Assembly (NCBI RefSeq): GCF_009901525.1
Contig: NZ_CP019288.1
Location: 5,113,501-5,177,500 of the forward strand
Direction: 5' to 3'
DNA length: 64,000 bases
Source of the DNA: Kordia antarctica
Lineage (GTDB): Bacteria; Bacteroidota; Bacteroidia; Flavobacteriales; Flavobacteriaceae
The first letter of the stretch is position 1, and each line of letters begins with the position of its first letter. Shown piece after piece: positions 8,934-38,934 of this stretch. The notes beneath the pieces were generated by a model that searched no databases, was not told the origin of the DNA, and saw only the letters and a list, made by a program, of their open reading frames with translations. Both the position numbers and the translations under genes were made by a program.

Positions 8934-10505
8934 ATGACGTTTACGCAATCATTTTTACTATTTTTCTTAATCGTTCAAGTAATTCACTTTTTAGGAACTT
9001 GGAAACTCTATGTAAAAGCTGGTAGAAAAGCTTGGGAAGCTGCTATTCCTATATATAATGCAGTGATTTTGATGAAAATTATCAACCGACCAAAAGAATG
9101 GTATTGGGTAATTTTACTATTCATTCCAATCATAAACCTAATTGTTTTTCCAGTAATTTGGGTAGAAACCATTCGTAGTTTTGGACGTACAGATCGTATG
9201 GAAACAATTTTAGTTGTTGTAACATTAGGATTCTACATTTACTACGTAAACTATATGTTAGATGTTGAATATGTGTATGATAGAAGCTTGCAACCAAGAA
9301 CGCCAGCAGGCGAGTGGATTGCTTCTATATTATTTGCAGTTGTAGCGGCAACATTGGTACATACGTATGTAATGCAACCGTTTGTAATTCCGTCGTCTTC
9401 GTTAGAAAAAACATTGTTAGTGGGCGATTTCTTATTCGTAAGTAAAATACATTACGGCGCAAGAACACCAATGACTTCGGTGGCTTTGCCAATGGTTCAT
9501 GACGCAATTCCTTTTACAGGAATGAAATCGTACTTAAAAGAACCACAATTACCATATTTTAGATTTCCAGGGTTTGAAGGAATTGAGCGAAATGATATTG
9601 TTGTATTCAATTGGCCAGCAGATACATTATCAGTTATTGAAGTTGGTAGTAGTCCTACAATGTATAAACCGTTAGACAAACGCTCAAACTACGTTAAACG
9701 TTGTGTTGGTTTACCAGGTGATGAATTAGAAGTGCGAGACGGATTTGTATTTACAAACGGAAAACAAAATGTATTGCCTGAACGTGCGAAATTGCAGTTT
9801 AACTATAAAGTATCTACTAAAGGAGGAGGTTTTAATCCTCAATATATGCATGATCGTTATGACATTACAGATGGTTTTGGAACAACTGGCGAAAAAAATC
9901 AATACTTCTTTTATGCGTTAACAGAAGCGACAGCGGAAGAATTAAAAAATCATCCTAATGTACTTAGTATTGAAAAATTTCTTGAGCAAAAAGGTGTTGT
10001 TACTAGGGACAAAGTCTTTCCACATTCAGATAATTACAAATGGAACAATAGCCATTTTGGACCCATTACAATTCCTGCAAAAGGATCAACAGTACAATTA
10101 ACAAAGGAAAACTTACCATTATACAAACGAGCAATTTCTGAATACGAAGGAAATAATTTGACAGTAAAAGACGATCAAATTATGATTGACGGAAACGTAA
10201 TTACTTCCTATACATTCAATCAAGATTATTATTGGATGATGGGAGACAACAGGGGAAATTCGCAAGATTCTAGAAGTTGGGGATTTGTTCCATTTGATCA
10301 CGTTTTAGGAAAGCCCGTTTTTGTTTGGTTTAGTTGGGATACAAAAGGAAATGGAATCTTCAATAAAATACGTTGGAACCGAATGTTTACAACCGTAAGT
10401 GGCGAAGGAAAACCTGTTTCATATTTTATCTATTTCGTAATTTTACTATCAGGTTGGTTTGTATTTAATTACTTTAGAAAGAAGAAGAAAGCGGCTGGGA
10501 AATAG
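8934..10505 (+). CDS. lepB: Signal peptidase I with N-terminal DUF5684-like membrane domain
   Basis: A 523-residue type I signal peptidase, much longer than the E. coli enzyme. Residues 1-110 form a membrane domain (several hydrophobic segments, W/Y-rich, DUF5684-like). The S26 fold starts after the TM at about 128-145. The catalytic Ser is S156 in PSSSLEKTLLVGD; the usual Met after it is Leu here. The catalytic Lys is K255 in NYVKRCVGLPGDELEV. Box E reads MMGDNRGNSQDSRSWGFV. A large insertion lies between Lys and box E (about 275-420). A final TM (about 495-515) precedes a basic tail. Confidence 0.94.
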   Translation: MTFTQSFLLFFLIVQVIHFLGTWKLYVKAGRKAWEAAIPIYNAVILMKIINRPKEWYWVILLFIPIINLIVFPVIWVETIRSFGRTDRMETILVVVTLGFYIYYVNYMLDVEYVYDRSLQPRTPAGEWIASILFAVVAATLVHTYVMQPFVIPSSSLEKTLLVGDFLFVSKIHYGARTPMTSVALPMVHDAIPFTGMKSYLKEPQLPYFRFPGFEGIERNDIVVFNWPADTLSVIEVGSSPTMYKPLDKRSNYVKRCVGLPGDELEVRDGFVFTNGKQNVLPERAKLQFNYKVSTKGGGFNPQYMHDRYDITDGFGTTGEKNQYFFYALTEATAEELKNHPNVLSIEKFLEQKGVVTRDKVFPHSDNYKWNNSHFGPITIPAKGSTVQLTKENLPLYKRAISEYEGNNLTVKDDQIMIDGNVITSYTFNQDYYWMMGDNRGNSQDSRSWGFVPFDHVLGKPVFVWFSWDTKGNGIFNKIRWNRMFTTVSGEGKPVSYFIYFVILLSGWFVFNYFRKKKKAAGK

Positions 10506-12104: not shown

Positions 12105-12180
12105 TAGTTTTTTAAAATGCTCCACAAAATCGAAGTTAAGTTACAGAAGCAGCATACATTACTGTTTAGTCTTGATAGTC
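12105..12180. repeat. Direct repeat copy 1 (3' region of peptide gene 1)
   Basis: The block AAAATGCTCCACAAAATCGA followed by AAGCAGCATAC and CTTGATAGTCTTGAG recurs in the same orientation and order at about 12909-12982 (AAAATGCTCCAAAAAATCGA, AAGCAGCATAC, CTTGATAATGCTTAG). This shows that peptide genes 1 and 3 arose by tandem duplication. Confidence 0.75.
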
Positions 12181-12294
12181 TTGAGAAGAACATGCATCCG
12201 TTTTACAAAATAGTTTACAAGAATACGTGTATTTACCACTACGATCTATAACGTGAGTTTGCTTTAAATTTGAAATAGATTTTTGTTTAGCCAT
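12166..12294 (-). CDS. Short Cys-containing leader peptide 1
   Basis: A 42-codon gene. The product begins MAKQKSISNLKQTHVIDRSG and ends in a core with three Cys (SCKLFCKTDACSSQ). KSISNLK is the leader motif shared with the other peptides, but the double glycine is replaced by RSG. A frameshifted continuation of the 3' region would encode LNSNVCCFCN, resembling the post-stop sequence of peptide gene 3 (LHLNVCCLYD), so this copy has probably shifted frame at its end. It may be a modified secreted peptide precursor or a decaying copy. Confidence 0.55.
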   Translation of the reverse strand: MAKQKSISNLKQTHVIDRSGKYTYSCKLFCKTDACSSQDYQD

Positions 12295-12450
12295 AATGAT
12301 TTAAGAGTTCTTTTTCATAACATGATGTTTTTAAAAATTAGTAATAAACCTAATGAATGAAACATTACACCAGAAAAAGTGAAGTCCGATAAAGTGTTGC
12401 TTAAAGGATTATCGATGCTTTTAGTATTTAAAAAACCTTTGTAAAAACAG

Positions 12451-12479
12451 AAAAAGCCGGGAGATTTTTTCTTCCGACC
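12451..12479 (-). terminator. Degenerate terminator after peptide gene 2
   Basis: On the minus strand GTCGGAAG, a short A-rich loop, then CTCCCGGC followed by TTTTT. It is an imperfect copy of the hairpin at 12859-12882, in the same relative position after its peptide gene. Confidence 0.5.
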
Positions 12480-12513
12480 TTGATAAAGTTTTACTTAAAT
12501 TTAATTTTTCTCT

Positions 12514-12734
12514 TTAACAATCTGCATAGCAAAACCTGAGTTCTGTAAAACATTTTTCATAAGTGATTGTACAAGTTTGAATTTCATGAGAAGCACATAA
12601 ATCCGAATTACAATATTCATTTACAGTAATGTAACATTTTTTTGTAACTCCTCTAAATCCTCCGTGAACGCTGTTAGTTTGCAAGTTAGAAACTAGTTTT
12701 TTGTTCAGCGTTAGTAATGTGATTTTTTTTTCAT
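12514..12734 (-). pseudogene. Double-glycine leader peptide 2, frameshifted at an A9 tract
   Basis: From the ATG at 12734 the frame is ATG-AAA-AAA-AAA-TCA and stops after 7 codons. One base shifted, an open frame reads ITLLTLNKKLVSNL, then a VHGG cleavage motif and a core with seven Cys, ending at 12516. Adding one base to the A9 run gives a 73-residue product with the same leader as peptide 3 (MKKQIT..LNKK). There is no other start codon in the long frame. It may be a true pseudogene, a sequencing error, or a gene expressed through slippage on the homopolymer. Confidence 0.65.
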
Positions 12735-12830
12735 AATAGGTGGTATTAACGTTACTTCAAATGAATCAAATATTAGACCATAAAGAGTAAATTCCTATTA
12801 AATTTTACTTAAAAAAAGTAGATTAGAAAA
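12731..12830 (-). repeat. Direct repeat: upstream region of peptide gene 2
   Basis: About 100 bases including TCATAAT, ATGAATCAAATATTAGACCA and TAAATTCCTATTAAATTTTA are repeated in the same order at 13117-13207. The shared block contains CAAATAT(T/C)AGACC, which on the minus strand reads as a TATTTG promoter-like box 33 bases before each ATG. Confidence 0.75.
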
Positions 12831-20577: not shown

Positions 20578-20793
20578 ATGAAAAAAAAAGAATTTAACCT
20601 AAGACTTAATCTTCGTAAGAATGTAATTTCTAATTTAGATAGCAATCAAATAAAAGGAGGAACGAATCCAATTGTAATCACCATTCAATTCACCGTACAG
20701 TTTACCACATTAGTGACCAAACCAGAAGTCTGTGAAACGCATGGCGATGTGTGTACATTATATTGTGAAACCAAAGAGATATGTAACTATTAA
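20578..20793 (+). CDS. Double-glycine leader peptide 4
   Basis: A 71-residue precursor. Leader: FNLRLNLRKNVISNLDSNQI followed by KGG (residues 5-27). The 44-residue core is Thr/Val-rich at first (ITIQFTVQFTTLVT) and then carries four Cys (VCETHGDVCTLYCETKEICN). The start ATG at 20578 is chosen because the leader begins right after it; the upstream in-frame ATGs give no leader. It is an orphan, isolated between two reverse-strand genes, with its own terminator. Such precursors are class I lanthipeptide-like in Bacteroidota; modification and export partners are not in the window. Confidence 0.75.
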   Translation: MKKKEFNLRLNLRKNVISNLDSNQIKGGTNPIVITIQFTVQFTTLVTKPEVCETHGDVCTLYCETKEICNY

Positions 20794-34968: not shown

Positions 34969-36429
34969 ATGAGTCAAGAAGTAAGAACTTTAGAACCAAA
35001 TGGACTTTGGAATAAATTCGCAGATTTAAACGCAGTGCCGCGACCTTCAAAAAAAGAAGAACGTGTAATTGCTTTTATGAAAAAATTTGGAGAAGATTTA
35101 GGTTTAGAAACTATTATTGATGAAGTAGGAAATGTAATTGTCAAAAAACCAGCAACTTCAGGAATGGAAGACAGAAAAGCCATTGTAATGCAATCGCATT
35201 TGGATATGGTACATCAAAAAAATTCTGATACCGAGTTTGACTTTGATACACAAGGTATTGAAATGGTTATTGATGGAGATTGGGTACGCGCAAAAGGAAC
35301 AACACTTGGTGCAGATAATGGACTTGGAGTCGCAACGATTATGGCAATTTTAGAAAGTAACGATATTGCGCATCCTGCATTGGAAGCGTTATTTACGATA
35401 GATGAAGAAACAGGAATGACAGGCGCAATGGGCTTGAAAGGCGGATTGCTTGAAGGAGAAATTCTACTAAACCTTGATACGGAAGAAGATGATGAAATCG
35501 GAATTGGTTGTGCAGGTGGAATTGATGTAACTGCAAGACGTTCATATGTTGAAGAAGAAACACCAGAAGGTGTTGTAGGATATCAAATTTCAATTAGTGG
35601 ATTGCAAGGTGGACATAGCGGAATGGACATTCATAAAGGATTTGGAAATGCAAATGTGTTGATGAATCGGATCTTATTTGATGGATTTGAAAACTTCGGA
35701 TTGCGCATTGCTGAAATTAACGGAGGAAGTTTACGAAACGCTATTCCAAGAGAAAGTGTTGCAACTGTTGTAGTTGATAAAGTGCATCAAAAAGCGTTTG
35801 AATTTGAATTAAAAACACAAGCTGATACTATTAAAAAAGAATTTGCAACGATTGAAGCGGATTTAGAAATTATGTGTACTGTTATAGAAACTCCAACGGA
35901 AGTTGTGGAATTAGGCGTACAAGAAGGAATTACACGTTCCATATATGCTGCTTATAATGGTGTATATCGTATGAGTCCAGATATTGAAGATTTGGTAGAA
36001 ACATCAAATAATGTTGCACGAGTAATCGTAAAAGACGGAGAAATTAAAGTTGGATGTTTAACGCGTTCTTCTGTGGAAAGTGGAAAAATGGACTTAGCGA
36101 CAAAATTGAGAGCTTCGTTTGAACTTTCTGGTTGCGAAGTAGAATTTTCAGGTTCGTATCCAGGTTGGGAACCAAATATGAATGCTTCTATTTTACCAGT
36201 TTTGGTTGATTTGTATAAGAAACTAAATAATGAGGAACCAAACGTTGCAGCTTGTCACGCAGGATTGGAATGTGGAATTTTAGGAACAAATTATCCAGAC
36301 ATGGAAATGATTAGTTTTGGACCAACTATTCGTGGAGCGCATTCGCCAGACGAACGTGCAAGTATTTCTTCTACTCAGAAATATTGGAAATTTGTGTTGG
36401 AAATCTTAAAGAACATTCCGAAGAAATAA
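34969..36429 (+). CDS. pepD: Beta-Ala-His/aminoacyl-histidine dipeptidase (M20C, PepD-like)
   Basis: A 486-residue M20 metallopeptidase. The first zinc ligands are in VMQSHLDMVHQK (His and Asp), the bridging Asp is in LGADNGLGVA, the catalytic Glu pair is in TIDEETGMTGAMGL, and another ligand is in LNLDTEEDDE. The dimerisation segment includes SGLQGGHSGMDIHKGFGNAN, and the last His is in GAHSPDERASIS. Length and motifs match PepD, a cytosolic dipeptidase hydrolysing Xaa-His and other dipeptides. Single gene with terminator. Confidence 0.93.
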   Translation: MSQEVRTLEPNGLWNKFADLNAVPRPSKKEERVIAFMKKFGEDLGLETIIDEVGNVIVKKPATSGMEDRKAIVMQSHLDMVHQKNSDTEFDFDTQGIEMVIDGDWVRAKGTTLGADNGLGVATIMAILESNDIAHPALEALFTIDEETGMTGAMGLKGGLLEGEILLNLDTEEDDEIGIGCAGGIDVTARRSYVEEETPEGVVGYQISISGLQGGHSGMDIHKGFGNANVLMNRILFDGFENFGLRIAEINGGSLRNAIPRESVATVVVDKVHQKAFEFELKTQADTIKKEFATIEADLEIMCTVIETPTEVVELGVQEGITRSIYAAYNGVYRMSPDIEDLVETSNNVARVIVKDGEIKVGCLTRSSVESGKMDLATKLRASFELSGCEVEFSGSYPGWEPNMNASILPVLVDLYKKLNNEEPNVAACHAGLECGILGTNYPDMEMISFGPTIRGAHSPDERASISSTQKYWKFVLEILKNIPKK

Positions 36430-36497: not shown

Positions 36498-36695
36498 CTA
36501 CAACCAGGTTCCGCATTTTATACAGCGAGAAGCACCTGTATCTGGTCTTGGGTCTTGTGGCATTTGAGGTATTGGTTTCACTGTTTTTGTCTTACACTTT
36601 TTTCCTTTTGATTTTGCTACATCTGCCGTGATTTCGTCTTCAAATGTAGAAACTGTTTCTTTTTTTAATCCTAGAGCCTTTGTTTCTTTTTTCAT
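36498..36695 (-). CDS. Leader peptide 5, Lys/Pro-rich core with C-x2-C
   Basis: A 65-residue product. Leader: ALGLKKETVSTFEDEITADV (about 7-26), clearly related to peptide 6 (LGLKKQTISSLEAQLV) but ending AKSKGKK rather than GG. The core is Lys/Pro/Gln-rich (KPIPQMPQDPRPD) and ends with CIKCGTWL. The start ATG 36695 lies 25 bases downstream of a promoter-like box also found before peptide 6. The longer upstream frame runs through the palindrome and is not credible. Function unknown; possibly a modified peptide precursor. Confidence 0.6.
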   Translation of the reverse strand: MKKETKALGLKKETVSTFEDEITADVAKSKGKKCKTKTVKPIPQMPQDPRPDTGASRCIKCGTWL

Positions 36696-36720
36696 GATAT
36701 ATGTGTTTTTTGTTTCATTG

Positions 36721-36751
36721 CAAATATCAGTCAAACATGAAACTCCCAAAA
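36721..36751 (-). promoter_or_regulatory. Promoter of peptide gene 5
   Basis: On the minus strand TTTTG, 17 bases, TGATATTTG, followed by CA.. and then GAAACAAAAAACA before the ATG. The same elements with identical 17-base spacing precede peptide gene 6. Confidence 0.6.
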
Positions 36752-36789
36752 GGGGAAAAGAGATGAAAATATAGTAGTGTTTTTCCTGT

Positions 36790-36931
36790 AAAAAAGAGAC
36801 TGTCTGAAAAGGTTTAAACAACGTCATTACGAGAAATTTTTCATTTCGAAGTAATCTGTAAGTCAATAACTTAAACTTGACAGATTGCTTCATTTCATTC
36901 GCAATGACTGCTTTTCAGACAACCTCTTTTC
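36790..36931. repeat. Long imperfect palindrome (MITE/REP-like element)
   Basis: The outer arms AAAAAGAGACTGTCTGAAAA and TTTTCAGACAACCTCTTTTC pair. Inner arms pair GTCATTACGAG with CGCAATGAC and GAAGTAATCTGT with ACAGATTGCTTC. The total is about 140 bases with a short unpaired centre. Related arms (TCATTxxGAG, GAAGxAATCTG) occur at 42015-42108 and 52622-52655. On the minus strand it lies between the stop of peptide gene 6 and the promoter of gene 5, so it may also end transcription. Confidence 0.75.
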
Positions 36932-36960
36932 TATAATACAATTACTTTATTATAAGCGTT

Positions 36961-37173
36961 TTACCAGCTTGTGCATTGTCCACAATTTGAATATGAAAGT
37001 GTCATTGGTTCTGGTTGTGCAGGTGGTAATGGATCACATCCTTGTTGGCTTATGCATCCTCTTTCCATTGTTATCATTGAATGAGTTGTTGGTGCGCCAC
37101 CATTTACTAATTGTGCTTCTAAAGAAGAAATCGTTTGCTTTTTTAATCCTAGAGTTTTCATTTGTTTTTTCAT
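36961..37173 (-). CDS. Double-glycine leader peptide 6
   Basis: A 70-residue precursor. Leader MKTLGLKKQTISSLEAQLVN ends in GG, giving a clear double-glycine site at about residues 25-26. The core has four Cys (GCISQQGCDPL and NCGQCTSW), several Pro, and Met/Ser/Thr. The ATG at 37173 matches the leader start. It belongs to the same family as the other peptides in this window and shares promoter and leader with peptide 5. Confidence 0.75.
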   Translation of the reverse strand: MKKQMKTLGLKKQTISSLEAQLVNGGAPTTHSMITMERGCISQQGCDPLPPAQPEPMTLSYSNCGQCTSW

Positions 37174-37196
37174 GATATTTGTTTTTTGTTTCGGTG

Positions 37197-37227
37197 CAAA
37201 TATCATCCAAGTATGAATTTCTCAAAA
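37197..37227 (-). promoter_or_regulatory. Promoter of peptide gene 6
   Basis: Minus strand: TTTTG, 17 bases, TGATATTTG, then GAAACAAAAAACAAATATC just before the ATG. Near-identical to the region before peptide gene 5. Confidence 0.6.
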
Positions 37228-37409
37228 CAGGAAAATAGATGAAAAATATAGATTTTTTTCTTGAAAAGAGTTAAGTGTAAAATCTTGAATATTGAAAAAA
37301 CTAAAAAAAAGAAAGAATAAGTTTTAGTATTATTGCATTAAAAATCTTATAAATAGTATTTCTATGTAAGAAATAGTGTATTTTTAATCAAATTTTAAAA
37401 TATTTATTT

Positions 37410-37652
37410 ATGAAAAAAAAGAATAATTTGAATTTATCTTTGAGTAAAAAGACAATTTCTAATTTAACAGCAAGTAATTTGATGGCGGGAGATAATACTT
37501 GGAGTAATGAAACTGGTAATCCATTTTGTTTTTTATCCACTGCTGATAACCCTTTATGTGAGACTACTTCATTATCAGATTCACAAGGAATAACTTGTAG
37601 TTGGTGTCCAAATGGTGCTGGTCAGAATACCTGTAGAAAGGAGATAGTGTAG
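37410..37652 (+). CDS. Leader peptide 7, Cys-rich
   Basis: An 80-residue precursor. Leader: NNLNLSLSKKTISNLTASNL (5-24) followed by MAGD, where the expected double glycine is Ala-Gly. The 54-residue core has five Cys (FCFLS, PLCETT, TCSWCPNG, NTCRKE) and is rich in Ser, Thr and Asn. The leader closely matches the Bacteroidota class I lanthipeptide-type leaders. It is divergent from peptide 6 and has its own terminator. Confidence 0.72.
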   Translation: MKKKNNLNLSLSKKTISNLTASNLMAGDNTWSNETGNPFCFLSTADNPLCETTSLSDSQGITCSWCPNGAGQNTCRKEIV

Positions 37653-37721: not shown

Positions 37722-38921
37722 TTATTTAATAACTTCACTCACAATTTCTATTTCAAAAACTAAATCTGAATTTGGAGGAATTCCTCTATTTCCTCTTTCT
37801 CCATACGCTAAATGCGATGGTAAGAATAAAGTTGCTTTGTCTCCAACACTCAATTGTTGCAGGCCTTCTCTGAATCCAGCAATCATAGGTGCATCAGGAC
37901 CAATTTCAGTTTCCATTGGCTTATATGCGTTTGCGGCTTTTTGTTGCGCATCTACGGCATCTAAAGCTTCTGCGGTTGCTAAATTGTTTGTTTGTAATAA
38001 TTTCCCATCGGCAGCAAAATATACTGCGTAATATGCTTCTACAGTAGATGTTGCAGATAATTTAGCTCCAGTACCTTTTTCAGAAATATAATACTTTAAA
38101 CCTGAAGGTAATTCAGTCGCTTTTGCTTTTTGTTCTGCAAACTTAGCTAAAGTTTTTGCTGTAATCTCTTTTGCTTTTTCAATCGCTTTTGCTTTTTCAG
38201 CATACTGACCAGAAAATACTTTTACTTCATCAAATGCTTTTGCATCTGAACCAATACGAATGATTTCAACACTTTCCATTGTGATTTCATCAACAGGTTT
38301 GTTCATAGCATCTGGAGTTTTCAACACAGGTACTTTTGCAATAATATTTACTGTTGCCATTCTTACAGAATCAATTGCTTTCTTTAAAGCAACAGTGTCA
38401 GAAATTTGAGCTCTTAATTCTTTTTCCTTTGCAGGATTGATCACAACTTTTCCAAAAACGGTATATCTTCCATTTAATGAAGGATACGGAACATGTGTAA
38501 TGTAAAATTGACTTCCGCTAGTATCTGGACCAGAATTTGCCATTGCCAAAGTTCCTGCTTCGTTATGATTTAATGTTTTTACAATTTCGTCATCAAATTT
38601 ATAACCAGCATCGCCCATTCCAGTTCCAAGTGGATCTCCTGTTTGAATCATAAAGTTTTCCATAACTCTATGGAAAATAAATCCGTCATAAAAAGGTTTT
38701 CCTTGTAAACTATCTACCAATTGTGGATGCGTTCCTTTTGCCAAACCAATAAAGTTTGCCGTAGTAACTGGCGTGTCTGTAAAGTTTAACTCAACTAAAA
38801 TAGGTCCTTTGGAAGTTTGAATATCAGCATAAATTCCATCGGCTAATTCTGGGTATTTAGCAGTTTTGCAAGCTGTAAAACCTAATGCGATGATAGCAAT
38901 AAGTAGTGTGATTTTTTTCAT
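37722..38921 (-). CDS. Peptidyl-prolyl isomerase lipoprotein, cyclophilin-FKBP fusion
   Basis: About 399 residues. A lipoprotein signal (MKKITLLIAIIALGFTAC) precedes a cyclophilin domain (about 30-225) with FIFHRVMENFMIQTGDPLGTG, GTLAMANSGPDTSGSQFYIT and NGRYTVFGKV. An Ala/Lys-rich helical linker follows, then an FKBP domain (about 270-399) with PMIAGFREGLQQL, LFLPSHLAYGERG and IPPNSDLVFEIEI. It probably assists folding of envelope proteins. An ATG four codons upstream (38933), one base after the gldI stop, is an alternative start. Confidence 0.92.
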   Translation of the reverse strand: MKKITLLIAIIALGFTACKTAKYPELADGIYADIQTSKGPILVELNFTDTPVTTANFIGLAKGTHPQLVDSLQGKPFYDGFIFHRVMENFMIQTGDPLGTGMGDAGYKFDDEIVKTLNHNEAGTLAMANSGPDTSGSQFYITHVPYPSLNGRYTVFGKVVINPAKEKELRAQISDTVALKKAIDSVRMATVNIIAKVPVLKTPDAMNKPVDEITMESVEIIRIGSDAKAFDEVKVFSGQYAEKAKAIEKAKEITAKTLAKFAEQKAKATELPSGLKYYISEKGTGAKLSATSTVEAYYAVYFAADGKLLQTNNLATAEALDAVDAQQKAANAYKPMETEIGPDAPMIAGFREGLQQLSVGDKATLFLPSHLAYGERGNRGIPPNSDLVFEIEIVSEVIK

Positions 38922-38934
38922 TAGTACATTCATT

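What the first reader, a model, noticed from the sequence alone, without database searches (positions are those of the whole stretch)
36498..37652. Second peptide patch: three leader peptides, two with identical promoter architecture
Seen: peptides 5 and 6 have near-identical 5' regions (TTTTG, 17 bases, TGATATTTG, GAAACAAAAAACA, then ATG) and leaders, but unrelated cores (Lys/Pro-rich with CxxC versus four-Cys GG peptide). Peptide 7 diverges from them. The TGATATTTG word also precedes peptide 3 at 13.15 kb, and TAATATTTG precedes peptide 2. This suggests a co-regulated, genome-wide set of small secreted peptides.
Basis: partly seen in the sequence, partly recalled or inferred. Interest (0 to 1): 0.7.

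Follow-up and report, generated by a model that had tools for sequence, protein, structure and literature searches.

The report
Kordia lanthipeptide-like precursor gene patch
Three small genes in a marine Kordia bacterium look like raw material for modified, exported peptides; two are duplicate copies that kept one promoter, and they belong to a scattered set of about a hundred or more such genes that probably share one set of modifying enzymes.

Summary
Peptides 5 and 6 are tandem paralogues. Their 5' regions match, and their cores are related, not unrelated: both end in CxxC-x-x-W. The exact box TTTTG-N17-TGATATTTG occurs twice in the 5.5 Mb genome, only here. With its 5' UTR word (up to 3 mismatches) it has 16 matches in 10 of 11 genomes of the genus, each before an LxLxK-type leader precursor. 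It is the inherited promoter of a conserved locus, not a genome-wide switch: 74 of 76 precursors examined lack it.

The wider set is real: 125 leader-profile matches in the part of the genome fetched, against one LanB and one LanC, 1.4 Mb away. Each of 11 Kordia genomes has exactly one LanB. A different element, TACGG-N5-CCGTA-N22-TAnnTT, marks a subset: 16 of 16 exact sites in this genome precede small peptides of two unrelated leader families (15 with GG). It occurs 9 to 30 times in each of 11 genomes, with none in the reversed control. The window's peptides lack it.

Best reading: class I lanthipeptide-like precursors modified in trans. Modification and function are untested.

The parts
36498..36695 (-). 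Peptide 5, 65 aa: diverged tandem copy of peptide 6; LxLxK leader with F in place of the last L; no GG; Pro-rich, ends SRCIKCGTWL
36961..37173 (-). Peptide 6, 70 aa: LGLKKQTISSL leader, GGAPTT junction, four-Cys core; member of a precursor family found in 10 of 11 genomes of the genus
37410..37652 (+). Peptide 7, 80 aa: LSLSKKTISNL leader, MAG instead of GG, Cys-containing core; NF038153 near its cut-off
   Evidence: searches (20.8 bits; 22.2 bits, six-frame search), cut-off 22
36721..36751 (-). Box TTTTG-N17-TGATATTTG of peptide 5 (probable -33/-7 promoter)
37197..37227 (-). Box TTTTG-N17-TGATATTTG of peptide 6
36707..36716 (-). GAAACAAAAA, presumed 5' UTR of peptide 5
37183..37192 (-). GAAACAAAAA, presumed 5' UTR of peptide 6
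36777..36787 (-). AGGAAAAACAC upstream of the peptide 5 promoter; similar words stand before most relatives (degenerate before peptide 6)
   Evidence: printed promoters; function unknown; not clearly enriched among precursors

Best explanation
Peptides 5-7 are precursors of ribosomally made, modified, exported peptides of the Bacteroidetes class I lanthipeptide type. Peptides 5 and 6 arose by tandem duplication at a locus kept between pepD and a peptidyl-prolyl isomerase gene; promoter, 5' UTR and leader were kept while the core changed, and peptide 5 lost its GG cleavage site. The box is most likely an ordinary sigma-A type promoter conserved by descent. The leader is inferred to bind the genome's one split LanB (Lant_dehydr_N plus Lant_dehydr_C) and LanC, about 1.4 Mb away, which would dehydrate Ser/Thr and join them to Cys; a C39 ABC transporter in the LanB cluster would cut after GG and export. 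Shown: genes, duplication, conservation, one LanB and one LanC, the conserved cluster. Inferred: promoter activity, modification in trans, cleavage, export. Function unknown; interbacterial competition or signalling is the likeliest guess.
For: Leaders of peptides 6 and 7 fit LxLxKx5L, described with GG ends and clustered C39 proteases for Bacteroidetes class I LanAs in PMC7268733 (passages). One LanB domain, one LanC and three C39 domains in the genome; exactly one LanB in 11 of 11 genus genomes. Cluster sigma-TPR-LanC-LanB-LanBC-TPR/AraC-HlyD conserved in 10 of 10 relatives, C39 transporter in 9 of 10 (the tenth stretch ends first), and in 10 of 10 precursors with a similar leader lie in the cluster (domains). 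Peptide 6 relatives lie beside pepD and the isomerase gene in 10 of 10 box-bearing genomes, own genome included; leader identity 75%, core 56%; GGAPTT, C-x-S-Q-x-x-C-x-P and one later Cys are invariant in the ten. These ten were found by the box, so their having it is by construction; the two Kordia loci found by pepD instead also carry a peptide 6 relative behind the box (they are the same species as G002 and, by identical peptide, G007). Box plus UTR: 16 of 16 genus matches precede precursors. In G010 the exact box precedes a peptide with a different core, next to the peptide 6 relative.
Against: Peptides 5 and 6 do not match NF038153 and peptide 7 straddles the cut-off. Peptide 5 lacks GG and has F where the motif has L; peptide 7 has MAG. 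No modifying enzyme lies near the patch. The -7 word GATATTTG departs at one position from TAnnTTTG. None of the 76 precursors has TTG-N17-21-TAnnTTTG, against 18 of 578 other genes, so an ordinary promoter is not clearly shown. The core of the peptide 6 family is partly conserved, unlike the hypervariable cores of prochlorosins. One of 11 genomes (G009) gave no box match; whether it has the peptide was not tested. Other RiPP enzymes (radical SAM, graspetide ligases) were not searched.
Confidence: 0.66

Rival explanations
1. A genome-wide regulon defined by the reader's box: a dedicated regulator or sigma factor reads TTTTG-N17-TGATATTTG before many peptide genes.
For: The box plus UTR word precedes precursors in 16 of 16 genus matches, from at least two precursor families.
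Against: 2 of 76 precursors carry it, both in this tandem pair; exact copies elsewhere in the genome: none; 1-3 copies per genome in the 10 genomes that have it.
Confidence: 0.06
2. The peptides are unmodified, disulfide-bonded bacteriocin-like peptides exported by the C39 route; LanB/LanC serve only the precursors in their own cluster.
For: Cores are Cys-rich (about 12% Cys in 73 cores); CxxC motifs; a C39-like protein with, by eye, membrane spans and a CxxC thioredoxin-like end lies downstream of a palindrome-driven peptide. The second leader family is not of the LanB-associated type yet shares the palindrome promoter.
Against: Distributed and cluster-encoded precursors share the leader motif, which for Bacteroidetes is tied to class I LanAs; Ser and Thr make up about 18% of the 73 cores.
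Confidence: 0.22
3. The patch is decaying: former precursor genes no longer expressed or processed.
For: Peptide 5 lost GG; in the other patch of the window peptides 1 and 2 are interrupted.
Against: Peptide 6 has an intact frame and relatives with the same promoter in 9 of the 10 other genomes.
Confidence: 0.06

Closest known systems
Bacteroidetes class I lanthipeptide precursors (LxLxKx5L leader; NCBIfam NF038153 lant_leader_L1a; PMC7268733, passages seen)
   Same: Leader motif, GG in peptide 6, Cys with Ser/Thr in the core, a C39 transporter and LanB/LanC in the genome
   Different: Encoded 1.4 Mb from the enzymes, far outside the seven-gene limit used in that survey; NF038153 does not reach peptides 5 and 6
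Prochlorosins / SyncA with ProcM / SyncM (PMC10783134, passages seen)
   Same: Many scattered precursors with a kept leader and varied cores, one modifying system; 29, 79 and 83 precursors in the cases given there
   Different: Those are class II (LanM) with Nif11 leaders; here a split class I LanB and LanC with another leader, and 125 leader-profile matches; promiscuity untested
Kordia as a RiPP-rich genus (PMC11118758, passages seen; PMC7477175, passages seen)
   Same: That Kordia is rich in RiPP precursors, lanthipeptides among them, is already in print; up to 176 precursors per genome are given there for Bacteroidota
   Different: The passages seen name neither the shared promoter elements, nor the one-LanB count per genome, nor the peptide 5/6 locus
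Flavobacterial sigma-A promoters (TAnnTTTG -7 box; PMC9723704, passages seen)
   Same: TGATATTTG and spacing resemble a -33/-7 promoter
   Different: First base of the -7 octamer differs; no start site is mapped here

Membership tests
Bacteroidetes class I lanthipeptide precursor | LxLxKx5L leader motif | tested here: met
   Peptides 6 and 7 fit; peptide 5 has F at the last position (read by eye)
Bacteroidetes class I lanthipeptide precursor | Match to NF038153 over its cut-off of 22 bits | tested here: inconclusive
   Peptide 7: 20.8 bits, 22.2 in the genome search. Peptides 5 and 6: no match
Bacteroidetes class I lanthipeptide precursor | Double-glycine end of the leader (common, not universal) | tested here: inconclusive
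   Met in peptide 6 (VNGGAP); absent in peptide 5; MAG in peptide 7
Bacteroidetes class I lanthipeptide precursor | Class I enzymes LanB and LanC in the genome | tested here: met
   One each; split LanB confirmed by PF04738 and PF14028
Bacteroidetes class I lanthipeptide precursor | Precursor encoded in the same cluster as the enzymes | tested here: not met
   LanB at 3.74 Mb, patch at 5.15 Mb; cluster-encoded precursors of similar leader exist
Bacteroidetes class I lanthipeptide precursor | Thioether rings in the product | not testable with these tools
   Needs mass spectrometry
Prochlorosin system | One LanM with Nif11-type leaders | tested here: not met
   The only LANC_like match at E<=0.01 is a 405-aa stand-alone LanC; the leaders are of another type
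Prochlorosin system | Many scattered precursors for one modifying system | tested here: inconclusive
   125 leader-profile matches in fetched parts against one LanB; that the one LanB modifies them is not tested
Flavobacterial sigma-A promoter | -7 box TAnnTTTG with an upstream TTG | tested here: inconclusive
   GATATTTG fits 5 of 6 fixed bases; TTTTG 18 bases upstream of it

The most novel reading that the evidence does not exclude
Kordia species run a secreted-peptide regulon. A palindrome-binding activator reads TACGG-N5-CCGTA placed 22 bases before a -7-like box and switches on dozens of small, mostly double-glycine, peptides from two unrelated leader families (one class I lanthipeptide type, one bacteriocin type) together with some secreted proteins. 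One LanB/LanC set makes a combinatorial library from about a hundred or more scattered precursors, and conserved tandem loci such as peptides 5/6 stand outside that switch with their own promoter.
Probability: 0.5. Interest if true: 0.72.

Novelty: new variant of a known kind. Interest (0 to 1): 0.52.

Why it matters
If right, Kordia would be a class I counterpart of the prochlorosin system: one dehydratase and one cyclase facing about a hundred or more leaders and cores, in a culturable marine bacterium. The palindrome gives a simple handle on when part of this peptide set is made, which bears on an open question about such libraries: what they are for. It also suggests that two leader families with no common leader sequence can sit behind one promoter cassette.

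Tried and rejected
The -7 word with the UTR word (TGATATTTG-N6-AACAAAAAA, up to three mismatches) gave 77 matches against 71 in the reversed control, so it carries no signal at that looseness.

Plain TTG-N17-21-TAnnTTTG as the common promoter: 0 of 76 precursors, 18 of 578 other genes.

Motif search by expectation-maximisation on 76 upstreams is circular as a test. The independent test is a matrix trained on the other genomes: 10 of 76 precursors against 3 of 578 genes at 8 bits, Fisher p about 5.5e-8. 66 of 76 precursors lack the palindrome by that measure.

Gapped word-pair enrichment gave mainly A/T-rich words. A second conserved word, AGGAAAAACAC, before peptide 5/6 relatives, tested as GGAAAAACACGG, is not clearly enriched among precursors: 3 of 125 against 9 of 578 at two mismatches.

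The LanB cluster genes themselves show no palindrome promoter; the best of seven upstreams has 4 mismatches. My notebook line that the C39 gene at 2785555 has its own palindrome promoter was too simple: the first gene behind that site is a small peptide, and the C39-like gene follows about 170 bases after it.

Results that limit the palindrome: of 35 one-mismatch sites seen in the own genome, 21 precede small leader peptides, 7 other genes and 7 none. Two of the peptides counted behind exact sites lack GG (one in G000 with GRG, one in G002). Looser forms fade: 106 matches against 31 in the control at up to two mismatches, 478 against 474 at up to three. Outside the genus 49 of 297 genomes have 1-4 exact matches, while the reversed control matches in 14 of all 299 by my count of the listing.

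Rows dropped: 93 pattern matches, 14 dropped by rule (one of them, at 4544444, looks genuine), 3 more by eye, leaving 76. Of 11 exact sites of G002, 10 were read. The 2-mismatch sites fetched were not tallied. The 125 come from stretches partly fetched because of the palindrome, so its share of palindromes is biased; the profile was trained on the 76; 5 of 125 lack G[GSA] in the expected place. The regulator was not sought. Whether genomes without LanB lack the precursors was not tested.

Full report
What is there. The window lies in a 5,500,985-base genome. The genus search covered 11 genomes, own included. Between pepD (34969-36429) and a peptidyl-prolyl isomerase gene (37722-38933; both genes named by eye) lie peptides 5 and 6 on the minus strand and peptide 7 on the plus strand.

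Peptides 5 and 6. The box TTTTG-N17-TGATATTTG occurs exactly twice in the genome, before these two genes, with none in the reversed control. Their 5' regions align, best from about 90 bases before the start codon into the leader. The proteins nevertheless align throughout, and peptide 5 fits the relative in genome G003 better: both end in PQDPRPxTGxSxCIKCGTWL. Peptide 5 lacks the GGAPTT junction that peptide 6 and its nine relatives carry. Peptide 5 is therefore best read as a diverged duplicate.

Conservation. A longer pattern (box plus GAAACAAAAA, up to 3 mismatches) gave 16 matches in 10 of 11 genomes of the genus and none in the reversed control. All 16 are followed within 9-12 bases by a leader-type precursor. 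Ten genomes, own included, have a peptide 6 family member; pepD lies beside it in all ten. Because the box was the search key, its presence in these ten is by construction; the two Kordia loci found through pepD show the same peptide behind the same box, but they are the species already counted as G002 and, by identical peptide, G007. Leader identity averages 75%, core 56%. In G010 the exact box precedes a peptide with a quite different core, beside the peptide 6 relative, and K. algicida has a second precursor at the locus. The locus therefore seems to duplicate repeatedly, keeping promoter and leader while the core drifts. Four weaker matches (2-3 mismatches) precede a second precursor family (L368, L370-L372). 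G009 gave no match.

The wider set. NF038153 gives 87 matches at E<=10 in the genome, 20 over its cut-off, scattered. From stretches around them I took 76 precursors. A profile of their leaders finds 125 in all the fetched stretches, and a second profile finds 27 peptides of another leader type, MLKNILNLEGV..L.K.EQ..INGG. All 76 have Cys after residue 20. The genome has one Lant_dehydr_N, one LANC_like and three C39 domains. Each of 11 genus genomes has exactly one Lant_dehydr_N. The cluster is conserved in 10 of 10 relatives, and in all 10 precursors with similar leaders lie within it. LanC shows CYG and CHG words (sequence; recalled as zinc-site motifs). By the leader motif (PMC7268733, passages) these are class I lanthipeptide-type precursors; modification in trans is my inference.

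Regulation. The box is not the common element: 2 of 76 precursors and 0 of 578 other genes. Expectation-maximisation on the upstreams led instead to a palindrome, TACGG-N5-CCGTA, 22 bases before a TAnnTT word. Exact sites number 16 in this genome and 9 to 30 in each of 11 genomes, reversed control 0 in every one. In a sample of 299 genomes of the family 51 had a match; two of these are of this genus, and none of the other 49 had more than 4; the reversed control matched in 14 of 299 by my count. Downstream, 16 of 16 exact sites in this genome precede a small leader peptide (15 with GG, one with GRG), 26 of 30 in G001, 10 of 13 in G005 and 8 of 10 read in G002, one of these without GG. The exceptions include a recurring secreted protein of about 490 aa and a lipoprotein-like one (by eye). 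With one mismatch, 21 of 35 sites seen in this genome precede such peptides. Both leader families occur behind the element, and their 5' UTR ends resemble each other as much between as within families (0.52 between; 0.48 and 0.55 within; other genes 0.34). The spacing is strict: among 76 upstreams 7 of 7 palindromes with at most one mismatch have TAnnTT at 22, against 1 of 6 in 578 other genes. A matrix trained on the other genomes scores 10 of 76 precursors and 3 of 578 genes at 8 bits. The window's peptides 3, 5, 6 and 7, and the precursor at 20578 that I take for peptide 4, score negative, so they stand outside this element.

A third kind of control. Rfam's DUF805b RNA lies 17-22 bases before four precursors, one over the gathering score and three below it.

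Print. Kordia's richness in RiPP precursors is in print (PMC11118758, passages), as is a lanthipeptide cluster in K. antarctica (PMC7477175, passages). None of the papers listed by the searches names the palindrome or the peptide 5/6 locus in its title or abstract start; only listings and passages were seen, in an open-licence library, so absence from print is not shown.

Judgement. The finding itself is a new member of a known kind, with a correct eye for the shared promoter and a wrong one for the cores. Following it led to a one-LanB, many-precursor set and a genus-wide promoter element, which lifts it to a new variant.

Noticed in passing
G000 C1, e.g. L120-L128 position 1501; relatives L213-L239, L374-L413: Palindrome TACGG-N5-CCGTA 22 bases before TAnnTT in all 11 Kordia genomes; in the four genomes read it mostly precedes small peptides of two unrelated leader families.
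   Followed up: yes
L098:10345-10379 (+); L077:9274-9308 and 10064-10099 (-); L073:4844-4875 (+): DUF805b cis-regulatory RNA (RF02914) 17-22 bases before four precursor genes; one over the gathering score, three below it.
   Followed up: partly
window 12160-12800, minus strand: Peptides 1 and 2 are paralogues of peptide 3 with interrupted reading frames: stops appear early in the leader frame of both.
   Followed up: partly
L118:9547-11106 (+): 519-aa protein with a weak C39 match and, by eye, membrane spans and a CxxC thioredoxin-like end, downstream of a palindrome-driven GG peptide.
   Followed up: no
L218, L229, L233 position 1501; L382, L398, L404, L411: The palindrome also precedes a recurring secreted protein, 490 aa in the three read whole, with a start like MKK..FAQNESSG.
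   Followed up: no
window 36777-36787 (-), and relatives in L358-L367: AGGAAAAACAC-like word ending about 25 bases before the TTTTG of peptide 5/6 relatives; its reverse complement stands before the second precursor family (L368, L371, L372).
   Followed up: partly
L095:17813-19179 (-): A sigma-70 region 2 protein and a TPR protein stand upstream of lanC here and in 10 of 10 relatives; possible regulators of the LanB cluster.
   Followed up: no
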